DNA from: Neisseria subflava | GTDB lineage: Bacteria > Pseudomonadota > Gammaproteobacteria > Burkholderiales > Neisseriaceae | Assembly: GCF_003044935.1 (NCBI RefSeq) | Contig: NZ_POXP01000001.1 | Span: 620,001 to 684,000, forward strand | Direction of reading: 5' to 3' | Length of the DNA: 64,000 nucleotides | Part shown: one piece after another, positions 26,451 to 59,218 of the stretch | How positions within the stretch are numbered: position 1 is the stretch's first letter | Layout of the letters: each line of letters opens with the position of its first letter | Program-made: the position numbers and the translations under genes | The notes under the pieces: model-generated | Databases searched by the model: none | Seen by the model: only the letters and a program-made list of their open reading frames with translations | What the model was told of the DNA's origin: nothing

Positions 26451-26526
26451 TGGCTGGGGAGGAAGGATTCGAACCTTCGCATGCTGGAATCAAAATCCAG
26501 TGTCTTAACCGCTTGACGACTCCCCA
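26451..26526 (-). tRNA. tRNA-Gln (TTG), copy 3 in transcription order
   Basis: 76 bases including an encoded CCA. Acceptor TGGGGAG/CTCCCCA, anticodon arm CTGGA-TTTTGAT-TCCAG with anticodon TTG, T arm AAGG-TTCGAAT-CCTT, discriminator G. Identical to the two neighbouring copies. Confidence 0.95.
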
Positions 26527-26537
26527 ATAAAGGGTGT

Positions 26538-26613
26538 TGGCTGGGGAGGAAGGATTCGAACCTTCGCATGCTGGAATCAAAATCCAGTGTCTTAACCGCT
26601 TGACGACTCCCCA
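26538..26613 (-). tRNA. tRNA-Gln (TTG), copy 2
   Basis: Same 76-base sequence; spacers to neighbours are 11 and 10 bases, so the three must be cut from one precursor. Confidence 0.95.
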
Positions 26614-26623
26614 ACAAAGGGTT

Positions 26624-26699
26624 TGGCTGGGGAGGAAGGATTCGAACCTTCGCATGCTGGAATCAAAATCCAGTGTCTTAACCGCTTGACGACTCCCCA
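26624..26699 (-). tRNA. tRNA-Gln (TTG), copy 1
   Basis: Same 76-base sequence; its 5' end lies five bases after the ispE stop codon, so it is probably co-transcribed with lolB-ispE and released by RNase P. Confidence 0.95.
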
Positions 26700-50309: not shown

Positions 50310-51545
50310 TTATTCTTGCCAACGTTTGAACACCAGCGAAGTATTGACGCCGCCAAAAGCAAAGTTATTGCTGACCACATAATCTGTTTGAATCTCACGT
50401 CCGCCCGTTTGAATATAATCCACCTTGCCGCAACGCGGATCGATGTTTTCCAAATTGACGGTCGGCGCAAACCAACCATTGTTCATCATTTCAATGGTAA
50501 ACCAGGCTTCCAATGCGCCGCACGCGCCGAGTGTATGACCAAGGTAGCTTTTTTGCGAACTCATCGGTATAAAACCAAACACCGCTTCAGTAGCCAATGT
50601 TTCGGCAATATCGCCTTTTTCGGTCGCCGTACCGTGGCCGCTGACATAGCCGACTTTATCAGGCGTAATACCGGCGTCTTTCAGCGCAAGCTCCATACAT
50701 TTTTGCATGGTCTCTTTTTGCGGTTGGGTAACGTGGCTACCGTCGCTGTTGGCACCATAGCCGACGAGTTCGGCATAGATTTTCGCACCGCGCGCACGGG
50801 CGTGTTCCAATTCTTCCAATACGAAAATGCCTGCGCCTTCGCCGATGACCAAGCCGTCTCGAGCGTTGTCGTAAGGGCGCGGCGTCAGCTCAGGCTCGCC
50901 GTTACGGCGGCTGGCGGCATAAAGTGAATCGAAAACATAAACTTCGGACGGACAAAATTCTTCGCCGCCGCCGGCCAGCATCATATCAATCAGGCCGTAT
51001 TTAATCGCTTCGTAGGCATAACCAATGCCTTGGCTGCCGGAAGAACACGCGCTCGAAGTCGGGATAATGCGGCCTTTCAAACCGAAGAAAATGCCAATAT
51101 TGGCGGCAGTCGTATGCGGCATCATACGCACATAAGTATTGGCGTTGAAATTGCGCGATGTGCCTGTTATCAAAAGTTCGCCCATATCGCCGATGTCTTT
51201 GGTGCTGCCGACAGACGAACCGCACGCCACGCCCATACGGCCGTCTGTAATGCTTTCATCACCCAGCAAACCCGCATCCGTCAAGGCTTGCTCCGCCGCA
51301 TCGACACACAAATGCGATACGCGACCCATGCTTCTAAGCTGCTTGCGCGTCCAGTGTTCGGGAGGAGAATAGCCTTCAATCGGAGCACCCAGTTGCGCTT
51401 CCAATTCAGGAAAGCGTCCGCTCCAGTCCATGTATTTGACCGCGTTTTTTTCGGCTTTAAAGGCCGTCTGAATACTTTGCCAATCACGGCCGAAAGCGGT
51501 AATACCGCCGATACCTGTTACAACGACTCTTCTAGTATTCAACAC
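50310..51545 (-). CDS. Beta-ketoacyl-ACP synthase (ApeO-like)
   Basis: A 411-residue FabF-fold ketosynthase with a complete Cys-His-His set: C167 (TSSACSSGSQGIG), H304 (SGHGTATEKGD) and H337 (LGHTLGACGALEAW). It resembles the ketosynthases of aryl-polyene and xanthomonadin loci rather than the housekeeping FabF, which normally sits in a fab cluster. Last gene of the minus operon dehydratase-ketoreductase-ketosynthase; it overlaps the ketoreductase by seven bases. Expected to extend the polyene chain on the acyl carrier protein, probably as a heterodimer with the short ketosynthase-like protein at 52932. Confidence 0.88.
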   Translation of the reverse strand: MLNTRRVVVTGIGGITAFGRDWQSIQTAFKAEKNAVKYMDWSGRFPELEAQLGAPIEGYSPPEHWTRKQLRSMGRVSHLCVDAAEQALTDAGLLGDESITDGRMGVACGSSVGSTKDIGDMGELLITGTSRNFNANTYVRMMPHTTAANIGIFFGLKGRIIPTSSACSSGSQGIGYAYEAIKYGLIDMMLAGGGEEFCPSEVYVFDSLYAASRRNGEPELTPRPYDNARDGLVIGEGAGIFVLEELEHARARGAKIYAELVGYGANSDGSHVTQPQKETMQKCMELALKDAGITPDKVGYVSGHGTATEKGDIAETLATEAVFGFIPMSSQKSYLGHTLGACGALEAWFTIEMMNNGWFAPTVNLENIDPRCGKVDYIQTGGREIQTDYVVSNNFAFGGVNTSLVFKRWQE

Positions 51546-52267
51546 AAACCTCCGTTCACAGCAATCACTTGGCGCGTAATGTACGCCGCTTTTTCATCCA
51601 TCAAAAAGCGCACCGCATGCGCCACTTCCTCAGGCAATCCCATACGCGCGGCAGGGACGGCCTTTAAAATTTCTTCGACAGGTACGTTCTCATCGATAAT
51701 ATCGGTATCGATAAGACCCGGTGCCACGCAGTTGACGGTAATGTTACGTTTTGCCAACTCAACCGCCAAGGCTTTTGCCGCGCCGATCAAACCCGCTTTG
51801 GACGCGCTGTAATTGACCTGACCACGATTGCCCGTCAAACCGGACACCGACGCCATGCACACAATCCGTCCGGCTTTTCGGCGGCGGATCATCGGCATGG
51901 TCAAAGGGTGCAACACATTATAAAAACCGTCCAAATTAGTACGCAGCACCAAGTCCCAATCATCATCTGTAAACGCAGGAAACGCATTGTCGCGCGTCAG
52001 CCCGGCATTCAGTACCACGCCGTAATATGTGCCGTTTGCCTCAATGTCGGCAGTCAAAATTTCTCGGCAGGCTTCGCGGTCGGACACGTCAAACTGCAAC
52101 ACGCGCGCATTTCTACCCAATGCACGGATTTCTTCTGCAACAGCTTCTGCTTCATCGCGACGGCTGCGGCAGTGGACGACAATATCAAAGCCGTCCTGAG
52201 CCAAACCAAGCGCGACGGCTTTGCCGATACCGCGATTAGACCCTGTAATTAAAATAGTTTCACTCAT
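51539..52267 (-). CDS. 3-ketoacyl-ACP reductase (FabG/ApeQ-like)
   Basis: 242 residues from the ATG at 52267 (MSETILITGSNRGIGKAVA). Short-chain dehydrogenase with S140, Y153 and K157 (VNYSASKAG) and the cofactor motif TGSNRGIG. It reduces the beta-keto group after each extension. Overlaps the ketosynthase start by seven bases, indicating coupled translation. Confidence 0.88.
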   Translation of the reverse strand: MSETILITGSNRGIGKAVALGLAQDGFDIVVHCRSRRDEAEAVAEEIRALGRNARVLQFDVSDREACREILTADIEANGTYYGVVLNAGLTRDNAFPAFTDDDWDLVLRTNLDGFYNVLHPLTMPMIRRRKAGRIVCMASVSGLTGNRGQVNYSASKAGLIGAAKALAVELAKRNITVNCVAPGLIDTDIIDENVPVEEILKAVPAARMGLPEEVAHAVRFLMDEKAAYITRQVIAVNGGLC

Positions 52268-52288
52268 ACGTTTTCTCACTATATCGAC

Positions 52289-52322
52289 AGGCCGTCTGAA
52301 TCTTTGTCTTTTCAGACGGCCT
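52289..52322 (-). terminator. DUS hairpin within the minus APE operon
   Basis: AGGCCGTCTGAA and TTCAGACGGCCT with a loop of about 10 bases between the dehydratase and the ketoreductase. Confidence 0.55.
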
Positions 52323-52332
52323 TGTAAACGGT

Positions 52333-52821
52333 TTAAATGATTTGACCGTCTTTCGGACTGTACACATTTAAAGAAGCTTTTGCCAGCAAACCGTCCGGCG
52401 GCAACAGATGCTTCACATCTTCCGGCGCATCCGTCCAGCGCAACTCGCAATCAAATACGCCCATGCCGCCCAAATCCTGAATGGACACATGCGCCCTGAC
52501 TTCCAGCTCAGTACCGACAGGCACGGAATCGGCAAACAAATCCAGCTTGCGCGTTCCCAATAAAAAACCCAAACGGACAGGCTCTCCAGCCTTTAAAGCC
52601 TCAATGCCTGCAAACGCGCCTATGCCCTGCGCCATCAATTCCATATAAGCCATAGACGGCAACACACCATCCTGCAGCAAAATATGCTTGTCGCCAACCG
52701 GCGCACGGCAAACCGTGTAGTCATCGCCAAATTCTTTCACACAATCGATTAGCACCATATGTCCGCTGTGCGGAAGCAGCGAAGTCACATCATAAATCGG
52801 GGCACTCGGTATTGAAGGCAT
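52333..52821 (-). CDS. Hotdog-fold 3-hydroxyacyl-ACP dehydratase (ApeP-like)
   Basis: 162 residues. FabA/FabZ-like start LLPHSGHMVLIDCVKEFGDDY with the expected catalytic His (H18) and the helix LPSMAYMELMAQGIGAF carrying E61. Matches the ApeP type in aryl-polyene loci, which works with a second dehydratase (ApeI-type). A homologous ApeI-type domain is fused to the ligase at 56390. First gene of the minus operon. Confidence 0.82.
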   Translation of the reverse strand: MPSIPSAPIYDVTSLLPHSGHMVLIDCVKEFGDDYTVCRAPVGDKHILLQDGVLPSMAYMELMAQGIGAFAGIEALKAGEPVRLGFLLGTRKLDLFADSVPVGTELEVRAHVSIQDLGGMGVFDCELRWTDAPEDVKHLLPPDGLLAKASLNVYSPKDGQII

Positions 52822-52931
52822 AAAATGTCATCCGGGAATAAATTACGTTACAATATGCATTATAACAGAGCCTAGCTTTTACTAACCCATTTCATTACAA
52901 TGTATGAAAATGTAAAACATTGAAAGACATC

Positions 52932-53693
52932 ATGCCTCAAAACGTTTGCCGTTTCAGCTTCAATATCGCCGCATGGCAGGCCTCCTCCAGCAAAATCAGT
53001 ACGCCGGAGCAATGGCAGGACTGGGCGCAGGGAAAACTCGATACCGCATCCCTGCCGGAGTGCAAACCCGCGCTCTCCTTTTTGCCGCCTATGCAACGCC
53101 GCCGCTTGGGAAAAGCGGCACGCTTGGTTTGTGATGCTGCATGGAATCTGGCCGACCAATATCCTGAAAGTGTACCGGTTTACGTTTCGCACGACGGCGA
53201 AAGCAACCGCAGCTTTGAATTATGGCAAGAGCTTTTGAACACGCATACCGTCTCGCCGACCTCATTCGGCCTGTCCGTCCACAACGCAACGATTGGGCAA
53301 TGGTCGATGTTGCGTAAAGACATGAGCGAGCATACCGCGTTGGCCGTTGCCGCCGATTCCTTTGAAACCGCGCTGACCGAGGCATTTGCGCTTTTACAAG
53401 ACGGCGCGCCATCTGTTTTAGTAATTGTCGCCGATGATCCGTTGTCTGAAGACTATCCCGTCTTGGCTACCCGTGCGCCGTTTGCCTATGCATTGGCACT
53501 GGTCATCACAAAAGGCGAAGACTATACCTTAAGCTTGGAAACCACATCTGAAAGGCCGTCTGAAAATCCTAACGATACAACAGTCGAGCCCTATTGGAGC
53601 AGCTTGGAGTGGGTACGCTTCCTGCTTTCAGACGGCCGACAACACACGCAACACTATATCGGTAGAAACTGGCACTGGCAGAAAAACGCATGA
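52932..53693 (+). CDS. Truncated ketosynthase-like protein (ApeC / chain-length-factor type)
   Basis: 253 residues from the ATG at 52932 (a TTG four codons earlier is possible). It matches the N-terminal ketosynthase half only (PF13723-like): FLPPMQRRRLGKAARLVCDAA, VYVSHDGESNRSFELW and the region SFGLSVHNATIGQWSML, where an active ketosynthase would carry the catalytic Cys; none is present here. Such short ketosynthases occur in aryl-polyene loci as partner of the true ketosynthase. Two DUS copies interrupt the C-terminal part (ERPSENP and LSDGR). Its stop overlaps the next start (ATGA). Confidence 0.82.
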   Translation: MPQNVCRFSFNIAAWQASSSKISTPEQWQDWAQGKLDTASLPECKPALSFLPPMQRRRLGKAARLVCDAAWNLADQYPESVPVYVSHDGESNRSFELWQELLNTHTVSPTSFGLSVHNATIGQWSMLRKDMSEHTALAVAADSFETALTEAFALLQDGAPSVLVIVADDPLSEDYPVLATRAPFAYALALVITKGEDYTLSLETTSERPSENPNDTTVEPYWSSLEWVRFLLSDGRQHTQHYIGRNWHWQKNA

Positions 53694-54448
53694 AGACTTT
53701 AGACTATTTCCGTCGCTTTTTTGCCACACTCTTCGGCTTTATCCTTTTCGGCGTTGCAGGCGTATTGTTCAAAATCGCACTTTTGCCCTATACGCTCAAA
53801 TCGACCAAAGGCGACATCAAACGTCAACTTGAAGCAAGGCGCATGATAGGCAAAGTTTGGCGTTTCTTCGTCGGCTACCTGCAATGGTCAGGCGTATTGA
53901 GCGTCCGCTTCAACGGCTTGGAAAAACTCGGCAGGCCCGGCCAGCTTATTCTTGCCAACCATCCCTCGCTTTTGGATGTCGTCTTGCTGATCAGCCATTA
54001 TTCGGAGCCAAACGTACTGGTTAAAAAAGACCTGTTGCACAACCCCAGCATGAAAAGCCAGATTATCGCTTCAGGCTACATCCCCAACGATGAAAGTATG
54101 GAAATGCTGGAAGAAATCGATGCCGTGTTCAAAAGTGGGCAAAGCCTACTAATTTTTCCCGAAGGCACCCGCACAGGTTGGGACGGACAGGTTAAAATGC
54201 ACCGTGGCGCCGTATCACTCGGTTTGCGCAGTGCATCAGTCATCACGCCCGTGTGCATCAAGATGACGCCGCCCAATTTTAAAAAGGGGCAGCCGTGGTA
54301 CAAAATCCCGCCACAAAAAATTCATTATGAAATTACCGTCGGCGACGACATCCTGCCGGAAGAATGGCTGGCAGAAAAACCCCTGCCCATCGCCGCACGC
54401 CGTTTAAACGAATACCTGCAAGACTATTTTACAAGGAAAACCACATGA
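53690..54448 (+). CDS. Lysophospholipid/1-acyl-glycerol-phosphate-type acyltransferase
   Basis: 252 residues of the PlsC family: NHPSLLD (H91, D96) and FPEGTRTG near residue 161, after an N-terminal membrane segment at about 10-32. The gene is placed as in aryl-polyene loci, where the acyltransferase is thought to load or transfer the product to a lipid. It overlaps both neighbours by the ATGA type, so the ketosynthase-like protein, acyltransferase and first ACP are tightly coupled. Confidence 0.87.
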   Translation: MKTLDYFRRFFATLFGFILFGVAGVLFKIALLPYTLKSTKGDIKRQLEARRMIGKVWRFFVGYLQWSGVLSVRFNGLEKLGRPGQLILANHPSLLDVVLLISHYSEPNVLVKKDLLHNPSMKSQIIASGYIPNDESMEMLEEIDAVFKSGQSLLIFPEGTRTGWDGQVKMHRGAVSLGLRSASVITPVCIKMTPPNFKKGQPWYKIPPQKIHYEITVGDDILPEEWLAEKPLPIAARRLNEYLQDYFTRKTT

Positions 54449-54705
54449 GCAATTTAGAAAACCAAATCAAACAATTAATCATCGACAGCTTGGGCTTGGA
54501 AGACATTACTGTTGCCGACATCGGCAGCGAAGATCCGCTTTTCGGCGACGACGGCCTGGGTCTGGATTCGGTTGATGCATTGGAACTTGGTTTGGCCGTA
54601 CAAAAAACCTTCGGCTTCCAGCTCGACGGTGAAAACGACAACCTGCGCGAAAACTTCGCCAACGTCAAAACACTGGCCGAGTTCGTCAAGAGCCGCCAAG
54701 CATAA
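54445..54705 (+). CDS. Acyl carrier protein 1 (APE-like locus)
   Basis: 86 residues with the phosphopantetheine site LGLDSVDALELG (S42). Start ATG overlaps the acyltransferase stop. Distinct from the housekeeping AcpP: DIGSEDPLFGDDGLG before the serine. One of two ACPs in the locus, as in the ApeE/ApeF pair. Confidence 0.9.
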   Translation: MSNLENQIKQLIIDSLGLEDITVADIGSEDPLFGDDGLGLDSVDALELGLAVQKTFGFQLDGENDNLRENFANVKTLAEFVKSRQA

Positions 54706-54717
54706 GGGAGAGAGAAG

Positions 54718-54966
54718 ATGACCGAACAAGAAGTACGCGCCCTGCTGACCGATGCACTAGTTAACCTGTTTGAAATCGAACCGGAACGCATCAAACCCGA
54801 AACCAACCTCTACGAAGATTTGGAAATCGACAGCATCGACGCCATCGACCTTATCGACCACATCAAACGCGAAACCGGCCGCAAACTGCAAGCCGAAGAC
54901 TTCCGCAATGTGCGTACCGTAGAAGACGTGGTTCAAGCGGTTTTGAAAGTACAACAAGATTCCTGA
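54718..54966 (+). CDS. Acyl carrier protein 2 (APE-like locus)
   Basis: 82 residues, site YEDLEIDSIDAIDL (S39). AGGGAGAG ribosome site six bases upstream. The serine environment (EIDSID) resembles ApeF-type carriers rather than AcpP (ELDSLDTV). Confidence 0.9.
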   Translation: MTEQEVRALLTDALVNLFEIEPERIKPETNLYEDLEIDSIDAIDLIDHIKRETGRKLQAEDFRNVRTVEDVVQAVLKVQQDS

Positions 54967-54986
54967 TTCCGCTTTGAATCAGCATA

Positions 54987-55026
54987 TTTTCAGACGGCCT
55001 TGTCAATCGGCAAGGCCGTCTGAAAA
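54987..55026 (+). terminator. Inverted DUS hairpin within the plus APE arm
   Basis: TTTTCAGACGGCCTTG and CAAGGCCGTCTGAAAA with a loop of about eight bases. Confidence 0.65.
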
Positions 55027-55038
55027 TCAATCACAACC

Positions 55039-55578
55039 ATGAAAATATTAGGAAAACTCCTACTAGCCCTCGCCAGTCTTGCCTATCCGCTCCTATGGTA
55101 TTACGGCAGGGAAAACGGCGCATTTTTCTGGCTTGCAGCGGCTATGTGTGTGTTATGGCTGATACGCGCCGCCATGCCGCAAACTACAGCACAACGCATT
55201 ACGGCGATTATCCTTGCTACTTTTTTTGCAGCGGTACTGGTTTTCAGACGGCCTGACTCGATGTATTGGTATCCTGTCGCCGTCAACGCACTGATGCTTA
55301 CCGTTTTCGGTGGTAGCCTGTTTGCCAAACAAACCGTTATCGAACGCCTCGCCCGACTGCAACACCCCGATTTGCCGCCCGAAGGCGTGCGCCACACTCG
55401 GCGCGTTACGCAAATCTGGTGCGCCTTCTTCATTTTCAACGGCGCAACCGCCGCCATTTTGGCTGGCTTGCAATATTACGACTGGTGGGCGGCTTATACG
55501 GGCATCGTGTCTTATGTGTTAATGGGAATCTTATTTGCCGGAGAGTGGATTTATCGGAAATTGGTTTTGAAGGTTTAA
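55039..55578 (+). CDS. COG4648-like multi-pass membrane protein
   Basis: 179 residues with five or six membrane segments, aromatic-rich (YPLLWYYGRENGAFFWLAAAMC). This type of small membrane protein accompanies many aryl-polyene loci (ApeG-like), role unknown. A DUS lies in the frame encoding VFRRPDS, showing that the uptake sequence has been absorbed into the protein. Confidence 0.75.
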   Translation: MKILGKLLLALASLAYPLLWYYGRENGAFFWLAAAMCVLWLIRAAMPQTTAQRITAIILATFFAAVLVFRRPDSMYWYPVAVNALMLTVFGGSLFAKQTVIERLARLQHPDLPPEGVRHTRRVTQIWCAFFIFNGATAAILAGLQYYDWWAAYTGIVSYVLMGILFAGEWIYRKLVLKV

Positions 55579-55618
55579 ACCATTAAAAATATTTCATCAA
55601 TTAGACGAATAACCATAA

Positions 55619-56374
55619 ATGAAAAAAATTATCCTATTTACTCTGATTTCCTTCATATTTACCGCATGTTCTTCGACATCTAAAACGCCTTTATCTCCTG
55701 AAGAAAAGGCAGAAGCCGAATACAAGAAAAATTATACGGAAGTTGCCAGCCATACCATCAAAACGCGCTCGGGAAACCTGACCGTCATTGACCGAATACA
55801 CAATCGTTATTCTGACGATACTACAGCCAGCAGCATGAATTTGATGATTATTCGGAAATCCAATACGGTAAAAGCAAGGGCTGCACAAACAGCCGCATTT
55901 ACAGCAACTTTTGCATTATTCATTCTTGCCGGTAGTAGCGGTCATATTGCATATGAAGGCCCTGACCTGCTGGGCAAACACAGTTTAAGCGGGAAGCCCA
56001 TTAAACCGAATTTTGCGAATCCTGTTTTTGAACAATTCTCCCCCAAAGTTCTCGATTGGGCGGCAAAACGGTCATTTAAAAGCAATAGTGCCAATAAAAA
56101 ACTATTTGTCCAACCGGGCCGTTTCTATTTGGTTTATGAAAAATTTAATAAACGAGACCGATTCTTTCTAAACAATGAAGTCAGCCTTTTGGTAGACGGA
56201 CAAAGTGGCAAAACCGATCGCTTACTCCATTGTTTCAAAAGAAGTGAAAGCCATTCATTGGAAGAATGGCAAGCAAATGATTACGAATTGGTACGCCAAA
56301 CGACAAATAAACAATACGATGAATGCTTGGCCCAATTCAAAGAAGATACCAAGGCAAATACATCAAAATTATAA
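55619..56374 (+). CDS. Lipoprotein of unknown function inside the locus
   Basis: 251 residues, lipobox FIFTAC (Cys 17) then a Ser/Thr linker; the middle has a hydrophobic stretch (AAQTAAFTATFALFILAGSSG) and the C-terminal part is charged. Base composition is more AT-rich than the neighbours, and the gene contains no DUS. I see no family match and no APE component of this shape. It looks like an insertion between the membrane protein and the ligase; an envelope role is only an inference from the lipobox. Confidence 0.7.
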   Translation: MKKIILFTLISFIFTACSSTSKTPLSPEEKAEAEYKKNYTEVASHTIKTRSGNLTVIDRIHNRYSDDTTASSMNLMIIRKSNTVKARAAQTAAFTATFALFILAGSSGHIAYEGPDLLGKHSLSGKPIKPNFANPVFEQFSPKVLDWAAKRSFKSNSANKKLFVQPGRFYLVYEKFNKRDRFFLNNEVSLLVDGQSGKTDRLLHCFKRSESHSLEEWQANDYELVRQTTNKQYDECLAQFKEDTKANTSKL

Positions 56375-56389
56375 AACCTTAGAACCATC

Positions 56390-58093
56390 ATGCACCTAAC
56401 CCGAATCCTATCCTCCGATCTACCCCAACACGACCTTATCGCCGCCCATCCGAATTGGACGCGTGCTGATTTCAACCGTGCGGTTTTTCATCTGTCAGGC
56501 CGTCTGAAACAGGCAGACGTGCAAACTGCCGCGTTGTGGTTTGACGATGCCGCGCTGTTTGCCTGTGCCGTGTTGGCAGTGTGGCATTCTGGCGGAAAGG
56601 TTTTATTATTGCCCAATTTGGCGCAAGACAATTTGGAGTGGGGAAAAACGGCAGAAGCGTTTTTAACGGATTCAACAGATAAAAAGCTGTCTTCAGACGG
56701 CCTGAACATTTGGCACTTGCCTGATGTATTGACTCAAACAGAATCGGAAGGACTGAGCACCTATCCTGAAAACCATCTGATTCCCGACCATGCCGAAGCA
56801 TGGCTGAAAACATCAGGATCCAGCGGTGAAGCGCAAATTATTGTGAAAACCGCCGCGCAAATGCAGGCAGAAGCCCTGACTTTGGCAAATACGCTGCCAT
56901 TTGGACAACACGGTGAAACCGTGATCGGCAGCGTGATTCCGCAGCATCTTTACGGCTTCACATTCCGCTTCGCACTCGCGTTGACAATGGGTTGGACTAT
57001 GGAGCGACAGCAGGCGGTTTATCCGGAAAACCTGCTTTCCAGCACAGCCGCACATGATAAAGTGGTTTGGATTGCCAGTCCGGCCGTACTCAACCGCTTG
57101 GGTGAAAACCGCAACTGGCAAAGTATCGGCCATAAAATTGCAGGCATTGTCTCGGCTGGCGGCGCATTGCCCGCAGCCACGGCGGATTTGCTGCAACAGG
57201 CTGCCGTCCGCCCGTTTGAAGTTTATGGCAGTACCGAAACCGGCGTGATTGCCTCACGTTGCGAACGCCAAGAATGGCAGCCTTTCGAAGGCGTGGAAAT
57301 CGGACAAAACGAAGAAGGCGCACTGTGGGCTTCTTCGCCTTGGTCGCCCGAGCGCCGCCAAACAGCCGATTTGATCGAGCCGCAAGATGACGGTTTTCTG
57401 TTACTCGGTCGTCAAGACCGCATTATTAAATTTGAGGACAAACGCGTGTCGCTGACCCAAATCGAACACGAACTTTTACAACACCCTTGGATTGCCGACG
57501 CCCACTGCGGCCGTCATCCGCAGCATCAACGCATTGCCATATGGGCAGCATTGAACGCAGACGGTATCGCCGCCTTGCGCGAAAAAGGCCGTGCTGCGGT
57601 TGCCGATACGCTCAAACGCCATCTGGCCGCCACGCAGGACACCATTGCCCTGCCGCGTTACTGGCGTTTTACCGACAACCTGCCACGTAATGCCCAAGCC
57701 AAAATCGCTGCGGCGGATTTTCAGACGGCCTTTACCGTTGCCCAAACTTCGCCCGTTTGGTCGAAAACATCATCTGACGATGAAACCAATACTGAAACTT
57801 TTATCGGGCGCGTGCCTTTGGATTTGGTTTATTTCGGTGGCCATTTTGCCACCTTCCCGCTGGTTCCCGGCGTGGTCGAGCTGCAATGGGTGCGCAACCT
57901 GATCGCGCCCAAGCTATGGGGCAAACAGCGTGTCATCCGCATCGAAAATCTAAAATATCAGCAGTTTATCCGTCCTCATGATGAAGTGTCGGTAGAGCTG
58001 AAATTTGATGAAGGTAAAAATAAACTAAGCTTTAAAATCAACAACGGAGAGCATCCGTGTGCATCAGGACGGATTGTATTTGAGGCCGTCTGA
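56390..58093 (+). CDS. Fused AMP-dependent aryl/acyl ligase and ApeI-type dehydratase
   Basis: 567 residues. Residues 1-~450 form an ANL-superfamily ligase: TSGSSGEAQ (141-149), YGSTETGVIAS, then LLGRQDRIIKFEDKRVSLTQIEHEL and the KIAAADF-type C-terminal Lys region. From ~470 a separate hotdog domain begins (TFIGRVPLDLVYFGGHFATFPLVPGVVELQW), with its His at 485. In E. coli the two activities are ApeH and ApeI, separate proteins. The ligase would activate the aromatic starter, the hotdog domain dehydrate the intermediates. Several DUS copies lie in the gene, and the stop is the TGA of a DUS. Confidence 0.85.
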   Translation: MHLTRILSSDLPQHDLIAAHPNWTRADFNRAVFHLSGRLKQADVQTAALWFDDAALFACAVLAVWHSGGKVLLLPNLAQDNLEWGKTAEAFLTDSTDKKLSSDGLNIWHLPDVLTQTESEGLSTYPENHLIPDHAEAWLKTSGSSGEAQIIVKTAAQMQAEALTLANTLPFGQHGETVIGSVIPQHLYGFTFRFALALTMGWTMERQQAVYPENLLSSTAAHDKVVWIASPAVLNRLGENRNWQSIGHKIAGIVSAGGALPAATADLLQQAAVRPFEVYGSTETGVIASRCERQEWQPFEGVEIGQNEEGALWASSPWSPERRQTADLIEPQDDGFLLLGRQDRIIKFEDKRVSLTQIEHELLQHPWIADAHCGRHPQHQRIAIWAALNADGIAALREKGRAAVADTLKRHLAATQDTIALPRYWRFTDNLPRNAQAKIAAADFQTAFTVAQTSPVWSKTSSDDETNTETFIGRVPLDLVYFGGHFATFPLVPGVVELQWVRNLIAPKLWGKQRVIRIENLKYQQFIRPHDEVSVELKFDEGKNKLSFKINNGEHPCASGRIVFEAV

Positions 58094-58129
58094 ATATACC
58101 TATTAACTTTTTAGTGGAAAACCAACAAT

Positions 58130-59218
58130 ATGCAACTCTTCCCTGCCCTAGAACAACGCTATTCCCACGAACACCAGTCTGCAGGCGAGGCTCAACGTCT
58201 GGCTCAAGAAATCGCTTTTGCACCGATTGTGTTCCAAGTTTCCCGCCTGATGGTGAAATTTGGCATTCTGGACTTGCTGAACGACCATCCAGACGGCCTC
58301 ACTCAAGCCGAAATCGCAGAAAAAGCGCAAATCAGCAACTACGCGGCACAAGTCCTGCTGGAAGCTTCACTGTCTATCGGCACTGTCTTGACTCGCGACA
58401 ACCGCTATTTCATCAGCAAGGCCGGTTGGTTTGTCCTCAAAGACAAAATGGCCCGCGTCAACATGGATTTCACGCAGGAAATCTGCTACCAAGGCATGTT
58501 TGATTTGGAGAAAACCCTGCAAACCGGCAAGCCCGAAGGCCTGAAAGTATTCGGCGACTGGCCGACCATTTACGAAGGCTTGTCTTCATTGCCAAGCATC
58601 GCGCAGGAAAAATGGTTTGCATTCGACCATTATTATTCCGATAACTCCTTCGCCGAAGCACTGAACACCGTGTTCGCCAAACCGGTTAAAAAACTGCTCG
58701 ATGTCGGCGGCAATACCGGCCGCTGGGCGGAGCAATGCGTCAACCACAATGCCGAAGTCGAAGTAACCATCATGGATCTGCCGCAACAAATCGGCTTGAT
58801 GCGTGAAGCGACCAAAGGCAAAAACGGTGCGGACCGTATCCACGCCCATCCGGCCAACCTGCTTGATCCTGAGATTCCGTTCCCAACCGGTTTTGACGCG
58901 ATTTGGATGAGCCAATTCCTAGACTGTTTTACCGAAGAACAAGCCACCAGCATTCTTCAACGCGCCGCTGCTTCTATGAGCGAAAACACCAGCCTCTACA
59001 TTATGGAGCCTTTCTGGGACAGACAACGCTACGAAACCGCCGCCTACTGCCTGACCATGACCAGCCTGTATTTCACTGCCATGGCCAACGGCAACAGCAA
59101 AATCTTCCACTCTGAAGACCTGATCCGTTGCGTTGGAAAAGCCGGATTGAAAGTAGCGGAAATTTCAGACGGCATCGGCCGCGGCCACAGCATCTTGCGC
59201 TGCGTTAAGGCTGTCTGA
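58130..59218 (+). CDS. SAM-dependent methyltransferase (ApeB-like)
   Basis: 362 residues. Winged-helix dimerisation part at the N-terminus (LDLLNDHPDGLTQAEIAEKAQIS), then the SAM domain with LLDVGGNTGRWAEQ near residue 190 and IMDLPQQIGLMRE. It belongs to the class I O-methyltransferase type. In aryl-polyene loci a methyltransferase of this kind is thought to methylate the aryl head. Its own stop is AAGGCTGTCTGA, a degenerate DUS. Confidence 0.85.
   Translation: MQLFPALEQRYSHEHQSAGEAQRLAQEIAFAPIVFQVSRLMVKFGILDLLNDHPDGLTQAEIAEKAQISNYAAQVLLEASLSIGTVLTRDNRYFISKAGWFVLKDKMARVNMDFTQEICYQGMFDLEKTLQTGKPEGLKVFGDWPTIYEGLSSLPSIAQEKWFAFDHYYSDNSFAEALNTVFAKPVKKLLDVGGNTGRWAEQCVNHNAEVEVTIMDLPQQIGLMREATKGKNGADRIHAHPANLLDPEIPFPTGFDAIWMSQFLDCFTEEQATSILQRAAASMSENTSLYIMEPFWDRQRYETAAYCLTMTSLYFTAMANGNSKIFHSEDLIRCVGKAGLKVAEISDGIGRGHSILRCVKAV

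What the first reader, a model, noticed from the sequence alone, without database searches (positions are those of the whole stretch)
50310..59218. Aryl-polyene-like pigment locus split over two strands
Ketosynthase, ketoreductase and dehydratase on the minus strand face a short ketosynthase-like protein, PlsC-type acyltransferase, two ACPs, a COG4648-like membrane protein, a ligase-dehydratase fusion and a methyltransferase on the plus strand. By established knowledge of the aryl-polyene (APE) and xanthomonadin loci, this is the full chain-building set. It is absent from the typical pathogenic neisserial gene list as I know it, and it could explain yellow colonies of N. flavescens/subflava-type species, usually ascribed to carotenoids.
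Basis: partly seen in the sequence, partly recalled or inferred. Interest (0 to 1): 0.8.

Follow-up and report, generated by a model that had tools for sequence, protein, structure and literature searches.

The report
Yellow-pigment pathway scattered in Neisseria
The window holds about half of the genes for a membrane pigment of the aryl-polyene kind in a commensal-type Neisseria, and the rest, including the partner of one of its enzymes, lies at distant places in the same genome.

Summary
But this is not 'the full chain-building set'. The elongating ketosynthase ApeO, known partner of ApeC, lies 542 kb away with exporter ApeM, ApeN, ApeL and a halogenase-like enzyme. ApeJ and ApeK lie 22 kb downstream. 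A dialkylresorcinol set (DarA, DarB, DarH and others) sits on another contig. In some other Neisseria nearly all of it forms one block. Of 18 near-complete genomes with five marker genes, 6 hold them in one place and 12 do not (15 kb linking), in 7 arrangements. Ligase and exporter are kept or lost together (36 with, 10 without, 0 mixed), and most genes are under strong purifying selection. Best reading: a working, dispersed APE pathway, product probably esterified to a dialkylresorcinol. APE and resorcinol clusters in Neisseria were already in print; my searches found nothing on the break-up or a hybrid product. No pigment was measured.

The parts
50310..51545 (-). ApeR-like homodimer-type ketosynthase (411 aa), active-site SACSS and GHGT motifs
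   Evidence: PRK09116 equivalog 719 bits; 56% to E. coli ApeR; PDB 4EWG, 7F27; motifs
51539..52270 (-). ApeQ-like ketoreductase (243 aa)
   Evidence: FabG2 385 bits; 56% to E. coli ApeQ
52333..52821 (-). ApeP-like dehydratase (162 aa)
   Evidence: PF22817 ApeP over cut-off; PDB 6QSR_B
52920..53693 (+). ApeC-like chain-length factor, half-length ketosynthase without the active-site cysteine motif; partner ApeO is outside the window
   Evidence: PF13723; PDB 6QSP_B 1.4e-23 and 7F28_A; 35% to E. coli ApeC; motif scan
53690..54448 (+). ApeD-like PlsC-type acyltransferase
   Evidence: PF01553; 32% to E. coli ApeD
54442..54705 (+). ApeE-like acyl carrier protein (DSVDA)
   Evidence: PRK09184 over cut-off; 51% to E. 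coli ApeE
54718..54966 (+). ApeF-like acyl carrier protein (DSIDA)
   Evidence: PRK05350 over cut-off; 57% to E. coli ApeF
55039..55578 (+). ApeG-like (COG4648-type) membrane protein
   Evidence: 41% to E. coli ApeG
55619..56374 (+). lipoprotein-like insert, no family over cut-off; in G000, G025 and G037, not found at that spot in G014 and G036
56390..58093 (+). ApeH-ApeI fusion: adenylating ligase plus dehydratase
   Evidence: PF00501 and PF22818 ApeI over cut-off; PDB 6QSR_A; 29% to ApeH, 33% to ApeI
58130..59218 (+). ApeB/FlxJ-like methyltransferase, presumably of the aryl ring
   Evidence: NF053543 FlxJ family 625 bits, cut-off 560; 47% to E. coli ApeB

Best explanation
A working aryl-polyene (APE) pathway whose genes are dispersed over several chromosomal places. 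Inferred steps: the ApeH domain loads an aromatic starter acid on ACP ApeE; ApeR and the ApeO:ApeC heterodimer extend it with malonyl-ACP; ApeQ and the ApeI/ApeP dehydratases turn each unit into a conjugated double bond; ApeB methylates and perhaps the halogenase-like enzyme halogenates the ring; ApeK, ApeD and the two ApeJ-type enzymes release and attach the chain; ApeM, L, N and G export it to the outer membrane. This genome also has a dialkylresorcinol set (DarA, DarB and a DarH-family acyltransferase; DarA is in 23 of the 45 other genus genomes), so the likely end product here is an APE-dialkylresorcinol ester like arcuflavin or flexirubin. The cluster was probably once one block and was taken apart several times in the genus while the proteins kept working together in trans. 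Shown here: gene identities, places, open frames, selection, co-occurrence, variety of arrangements. Inferred: chemistry, product, direction of change, pigment.
For: Family and structure matches to APE proteins. 16 of 17 E. coli ape proteins other than ApeA have a BLAST counterpart in this genome; ApeN is placed by neighbourhood. One-place marker sets in G003, G006, G009, G011, G018, G021 and eight drafts. The remote KS matches ApeO best (43% to E. coli ApeO; PDB 6QSP_A at 2.3e-90), and the window protein matches its partner chain 6QSP_B. Against four close genomes most genes have dN/dS 0.00-0.14. Ligase and exporter are both present in 36, both absent in 10, discordant in 0 of 46 genomes; 7 of 7 independent pairs agree, p 0.016. 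The same split in four single-contig relatives. Precedent: Azoarcus BH72 needs two unlinked loci for its pigment arcuflavin and has a dar cluster (PMC3949708 passages). DarB 567 bits (cut-off 450) and DarH 501 bits (cut-off 300) in this genome. No CrtI-family desaturase over cut-off.
Against: No product, pigment spectrum or expression was seen. Source of the aromatic starter not found: no UbiC, and the chorismatase search was uninformative. G037, a close relative, has an in-frame stop in ApeP. The PPTase (dN/dS 0.19-0.39), the partner of the dar-type ketosynthase (0.23), DarA (0.19) and the lipoprotein insert (0.17-0.22) are under weaker constraint. The gene content of the one-block sets is not identical: ApeB was seen in the stretches of G004, G008, G009, G019, G022 and the window's kin but not in those of G002, G003, G005, G006, G011, G017, G018, G021, G033, G034, G038, G045. 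The tree rests on FabF and a visibly mosaic AlaS, so the number of break-ups is rough. The APE-DAR link is genetic inference; DarA is absent from 13 of the 36 ligase-bearing genomes.
Confidence: 0.78

Rival explanations
1. The scattered genes are relics of a cluster that fell apart and no longer makes anything in this genome.
For: Two genus members (G015, G020) do carry remains with stops and partial genes; one close relative has a stop in ApeP.
Against: The ape and dar genes found in the window genome are open; dN/dS against close kin is mostly 0.00-0.14; ligase and exporter are present or absent together in 46 of 46 genomes.
Confidence: 0.1
2. The genes make a non-aryl polyunsaturated or modified fatty acid for the envelope, not an aryl-polyene pigment.
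For: Most enzymes are fatty-acid-synthase-like; no aromatic-acid source was found.
Against: ApeC half-ketosynthase, ApeP, ApeI, FlxJ-family methyltransferase and an adenylating ligase are the APE-type set; the housekeeping FabF is separate at C2:247382-248623.
Confidence: 0.07
3. The yellow colour comes from carotenoids and the APE genes do something minor.
For: Terpene clusters are reported for Neisseria (PMC8549736 passages).
Against: No CrtI-family desaturase over cut-off in this genome; five hits at 21-26 bits covering 29-49 profile positions. Phytoene-synthase families were not searched.
Confidence: 0.07
4. The scatter is an assembly artefact of a 9-contig genome.
For: The genome is a draft.
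Against: The window locus, the ApeO-ApeM locus and the ApeJ-ApeK locus lie on one 1.17 Mb contig, and G014, G025, G036, G037, each one contig, show the same arrangement of the five markers.
Confidence: 0.01

Closest known systems
E. coli CFT073 ape cluster (apeA-apeR)
   Same: Of the 17 ape proteins other than ApeA, 16 have a BLAST counterpart in this genome, and ApeN has one by place and by Neisseria relatives
   Different: One run there (the cloned cluster is 15.5 kb, PMC8253772 passages); here over distant places; ApeH and ApeI fused; ApeJ in two genes; a halogenase-like enzyme and a PPTase added; no ApeA match in the stretches compared
Arcuflavin pathway of Azoarcus sp. BH72 (PMC3949708)
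   Same: APE set in two unlinked loci plus a dar cluster with DarA, DarB, ACP, ketosynthase, ABC transporter and BtrH-like protein (passages)
   Different: Here the set is in more pieces, and the genus shows one-block and several broken arrangements side by side; the product is unknown
Flexirubin pathway of Chitinophaga/Flavobacterium (PMC3992019, passages)
   Same: FlxJ-family methyltransferase, LolA2-like carrier (below cut-off), DarB, DarH-family acyltransferase; flexirubins vary in ring methylation and chlorination
   Different: Tyrosine ammonia-lyase was not looked for; starter unknown; halogenase-like enzyme is nearest to 3NIX, named only a flavoprotein
Arylpolyene and resorcinol clusters predicted in Neisseria by genome mining (PMC6469967, PMC8549736, PMC11316581)
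   Same: Same class of loci in the same genus (passages)
   Different: The passages seen name them as predicted clusters; they do not describe the scatter, the ApeO-ApeC separation or a hybrid product

Membership tests
Aryl-polyene (APE) pathway | ApeO:ApeC ketosynthase/chain-length-factor pair | tested here: met
   Both present, best PDB matches are the two chains of 6QSP; ApeO has TACTS, LHGT and TGHT motifs, ApeC lacks the Cys motif
Aryl-polyene (APE) pathway | ApeR, ApeQ, ApeP, ApeI, two ACPs, ApeH ligase | tested here: met
Aryl-polyene (APE) pathway | Export and attachment genes ApeD, G, J, K, L, M, N | tested here: met
   ApeN by place and by its Neisseria relatives only; MMPL of ApeM is below Pfam's cut-off but matches E. 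coli ApeM at 7e-47
Aryl-polyene (APE) pathway | Genes in one contiguous cluster | tested here: not met
   hence not a member of the APE 'gene cluster' in the strict sense, though the pathway set is present
Aryl-polyene (APE) pathway | Aryl-polyene acid made, absorption near 430-460 nm | not testable with these tools
   needs culture and HPLC-MS
Flexirubin/arcuflavin type (APE-dialkylresorcinol ester) | DarA and DarB | tested here: met
   DarB 567 bits over cut-off 450, StlD structures 5GK0-2; DarA-like by 74% identity to the G011 neighbour of DarB, no family model over cut-off; the stricter DarB 'exception' model is not reached (453 of 550)
Flexirubin/arcuflavin type (APE-dialkylresorcinol ester) | DarH-type acyltransferase for the ester | tested here: met
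   NF053550 DarH 501 bits, cut-off 300; the role is taken from the model's name
Flexirubin/arcuflavin type (APE-dialkylresorcinol ester) | Ester product | not testable with these tools
   needs mass spectrometry
Flexirubin/arcuflavin type (APE-dialkylresorcinol ester) | Known aromatic starter source (tyrosine ammonia-lyase or XanB2-type enzyme) | tested here: inconclusive
   UbiC not found; chorismatase search rang nowhere, so uninformative; ammonia-lyase not searched
Carotenoid pathway | CrtI-family desaturase | tested here: not met
   no match over cut-off
Housekeeping fatty-acid synthesis | The window KS being the genome's FabF | tested here: not met
   FabF is a separate gene at C2:247382-248623, 37% identical to the window KS

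The most novel reading that the evidence does not exclude
Neisseria is a living series in which one pigment gene cluster was taken apart independently several times, down to the two halves of one enzyme heterodimer half a megabase apart, without loss of function; the pathway of the N. subflava-like lineage makes a ring-methylated, possibly halogenated aryl-polyene ester of a dialkylresorcinol, which would be a flexirubin/arcuflavin-type pigment of human throat commensals.
Probability: 0.45. Interest if true: 0.68.

Novelty: new variant of a known kind. Interest (0 to 1): 0.5.

Why it matters
Secondary-metabolite genes are usually thought to stay clustered because they are transferred and regulated together, and mining programs look for clusters. 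A pathway that is kept whole while its genes are repeatedly scattered would let one ask, within one genus, what clustering is for; and it means that a cluster finder sees a fragment. It also gives a testable genetic basis for the yellow colour of commensal Neisseria and suggests a flexirubin-type compound in the human throat flora.

Tried and rejected
Ordinary fab genes: rejected, FabF is elsewhere. Assembly artefact: rejected, four single-contig relatives agree. Carotenoid origin: no CrtI-family enzyme over cut-off. KS-C (the L009 ketosynthase) as an APE gene: dropped, since it follows DarA (I counted as KS-C the 23 genomes with a match at E 2.4e-44 or better; all 23 have DarA, which is in 24) and sits among dar genes in G011, G017 and G045. 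Its small partner gave no Pfam family, no NCBIfam family and no PDB match. The chorismatase search rang nowhere and says nothing. AlaS as a species marker is visibly mosaic, so the tree is weak; of the fetched FabF neighbourhood only FabF was conserved (43 of 44 genomes). The genome-contig scan gave only 3 loci. Paper searches for yellow Neisseria pigment and for carotenoid listed nothing relevant. Not done: a control for how often other gene sets of this size are scattered; structure prediction; search for ammonia-lyase or phytoene synthase.
Full report
What is in the window. The open frames at 50310-59218 are as described. Minus strand: ApeR-, ApeQ- and ApeP-like; plus strand: ApeC-, ApeD-, ApeE-, ApeF-, ApeG-like, an ApeH-ApeI fusion and an ApeB/FlxJ-like methyltransferase. 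With the 18 ape proteins of E. coli CFT073 as queries (region read; gene letters assigned from gene order and from Table 1 of PMC8253772, seen in part as passages), tblastn places R, Q, P, C, D, E, F, G, H, I and B in the window.

What is missing from the window. ApeC is half a ketosynthase; in solved structures it pairs with ApeO (6QSP, 7F28; PMC8358021, abstract and passages). The window genome (G000, the window being C1:620001-684000) has ApeO at C1:129939-131141, 542 kb from ApeC at C1:672920-673693. Next to ApeO lie an ApeN-like lipoprotein, an FAD enzyme of the halogenase kind, the MMPL-type exporter ApeM and a PPTase; ApeL (LolA-like) lies on the other side of an isocitrate dehydrogenase gene (named by eye). 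ApeJ, as two genes (glycosyltransferase and acyltransferase), and ApeK lie at C1:701188-703312. On contig C2 lie an ACP, a ketosynthase and a small partner (168189-170205), a DarH-family acyltransferase and an ABC transporter (within 173804-177819), and DarA and DarB (188753-191127). E. coli ApeA had no match in the stretches compared; in E. coli it is not needed for pigment (PMC8253772 passages).

The one-block version. In G011 the ape and dar genes occupy one stretch of about 24 kb, without ApeB; G003, G009, G018 and G021 have ape blocks with J and K inside, and G006 holds both sets in one stretch. So nearly all the scattered genes of the window genome have the same partners elsewhere. Content varies: ApeB was seen in the stretches of G004, G008, G009, G019, G022 and the window's kin, not in those of the 12 others listed in the Against line; the halogenase-like gene was seen in G003, G006, G011, G013, G017, G019, G022, G038 and the window's kin, not in the stretches of G002, G004, G005, G008, G009, G018, G021, G033, G034, G045. 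Whole genomes were not searched for these two.

How often it is scattered. Five markers (R, HI, M, O, J) were placed. The ligase is in 36 of 46 genus genomes; 30 of these 36 were classified, and I left six out because of fragmented or mixed assemblies or incomplete markers (G010, G023, G027, G030, G032, G035). With a linking distance of 15 kb, 14 of 30 hold the markers in one place and 16 do not; among genomes of at most two contigs, 6 and 12 of 18, with 7 different partitions. With distances from 10 to 100 kb the split count is 12-13 of 18 and the number of partitions 6-8. The label needs 6 changes on a FabF tree, where well-supported branches alone force at least 3, and 7 on a FabF+AlaS tree. 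AlaS is mosaic: G036 and G037 fall away from G000 although their ape proteins are mostly 97-99% identical. That the block came first is inferred from its presence in distant genus members and in E. coli; no control set of genes was measured.

Do the parts still work together. Against G014, G025, G036 and G037, dN/dS of ape genes at the window locus, the ApeO locus and the ApeJ locus is 0.00-0.14, except ApeP in G037 (0.22, with an in-frame stop), ApeF in G014 and G025 (0.29 on very few changes) and the PPTase (0.19-0.39). Of the dar-side genes, measured in G036 alone among close kin: ACP 0.09, KS 0.15, partner 0.23, DarA 0.19, DarB 0.02, ABC permease 0.09, DarH 0.02 over 79% of its length; the ABC ATPase was covered too little. 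Against the more distant G019 the genes compared give 0.02-0.19. Yardsticks: FabF 0.00-0.01, isocitrate dehydrogenase 0.02-0.05, HolA 0.00-0.07, the latter over 17-41% of its length in three of the four. Ligase and exporter occur together in 36 and are both absent in 10 of 46 genomes, never one alone (Fisher p 2.5e-10, which ignores kinship; 7 of 7 independent pairs, p 0.016); DarA (24) and the L009-type ketosynthase (23) agree in 45 of 46, the exception being the draft G032. G015 and G020 lack ligase, exporter and ApeJ acyltransferase and hold mostly broken or partial pieces of the rest, although R of G020 spans residues 25-406 without a stop.

Product. APE acids can be esterified to a dialkylresorcinol (flexirubin, arcuflavin). 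The window genome has DarB (over the StlD/DarB subfamily cut-off, below the stricter DarB model), a DarA-like protein and a DarH-family acyltransferase far over cut-off, a FlxJ-family methyltransferase, and an FAD enzyme with a WxWxIP motif and a lysine aligned with one in a known halogenase (that these mark halogenases is recalled). Its nearest solved relative, 3NIX, is named only a flavoprotein, so halogenation is a guess. Flexirubins vary in ring methylation and chlorination (PMC3992019 passages). UbiC is absent, the chorismatase search was uninformative, and ammonia-lyases were not searched, so the starter is open.

Colour. No CrtI-family desaturase over cut-off. The window's uptake sequence is the AG type (84 copies), linked in PMC7643975 (passages) to N. 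subflava, N. flavescens and N. elongata; that paper reports yellowish N. subflava isolates and an unpigmented N. cinerea isolate. G005, G009, G015 and G020 use the AT type in the stretches counted, which the paper links to N. meningitidis, N. gonorrhoeae, N. lactamica and N. cinerea; of these four genomes two carry one-place sets and two carry remains. They are unnamed, so no species is assigned.

What is known. APE and resorcinol clusters are already predicted in Neisseria (PMC6469967; PMC8549736; PMC11316581; passages of each); PMC8549736 states that MIBiG and NPAtlas held nothing from Neisseria at that date. Split APE loci have a precedent in Azoarcus, where both loci were needed for pigment (PMC3949708, passages). 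My searches for Neisseria with aryl polyene, dialkylresorcinol, yellow pigment and polyene, carotenoid, for flexirubin with arcuflavin or acyltransferase and for split APE clusters (20 of 48 listed) showed no report of the scatter or of a hybrid Neisseria pigment; apart from the papers named here with passages, I saw only titles and the starts of abstracts, and the library holds open-licence papers only.

Verdict. The scatter, its recurrence and the likely dialkylresorcinol link are the points worth a specialist's time; the pathway class is known.

Noticed in passing
55619-56374: Lipoprotein-like gene inserted between the ApeG and ligase genes; found in 3 of 5 close genomes (G000 included), dN/dS about 0.2; no family over cut-off.
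   Followed up: partly
26451-26699: Three tRNA-Gln (TTG) genes in tandem on the minus strand.
   Followed up: no
L069:8803-10729 (C1:692803-694729, just outside the window): PtuA and PtuB homologues of the Septu anti-phage defence system between alaS and the ApeJ/ApeK genes.
   Followed up: partly
L122:7803-8288 (G037): The ApeP gene of a close relative has one in-frame stop, while its other ape genes compared are open; described only.
   Followed up: partly
L186 (G020) and L187 (G015): Ruined APE clusters: partial or stop-bearing pieces of C, F, G, P, Q, R, O in two AT-DUS genomes.
   Followed up: partly
L136-L165, L166-L180: AlaS is mosaic across the genus: the middle of the protein is not covered by the match in 29 of 45 genomes, and close relatives differ.
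   Followed up: no
G000, whole genome: No UbiC-type chorismate lyase was found, so the source of 4-hydroxybenzoate, also needed for ubiquinone, is open.
   Followed up: no
L009:4190-4957: Small protein overlapping the dar-type ketosynthase gene, conserved beside it in several genomes, with no Pfam, NCBIfam or PDB match; perhaps a second chain-length-factor-like partner.
   Followed up: partly
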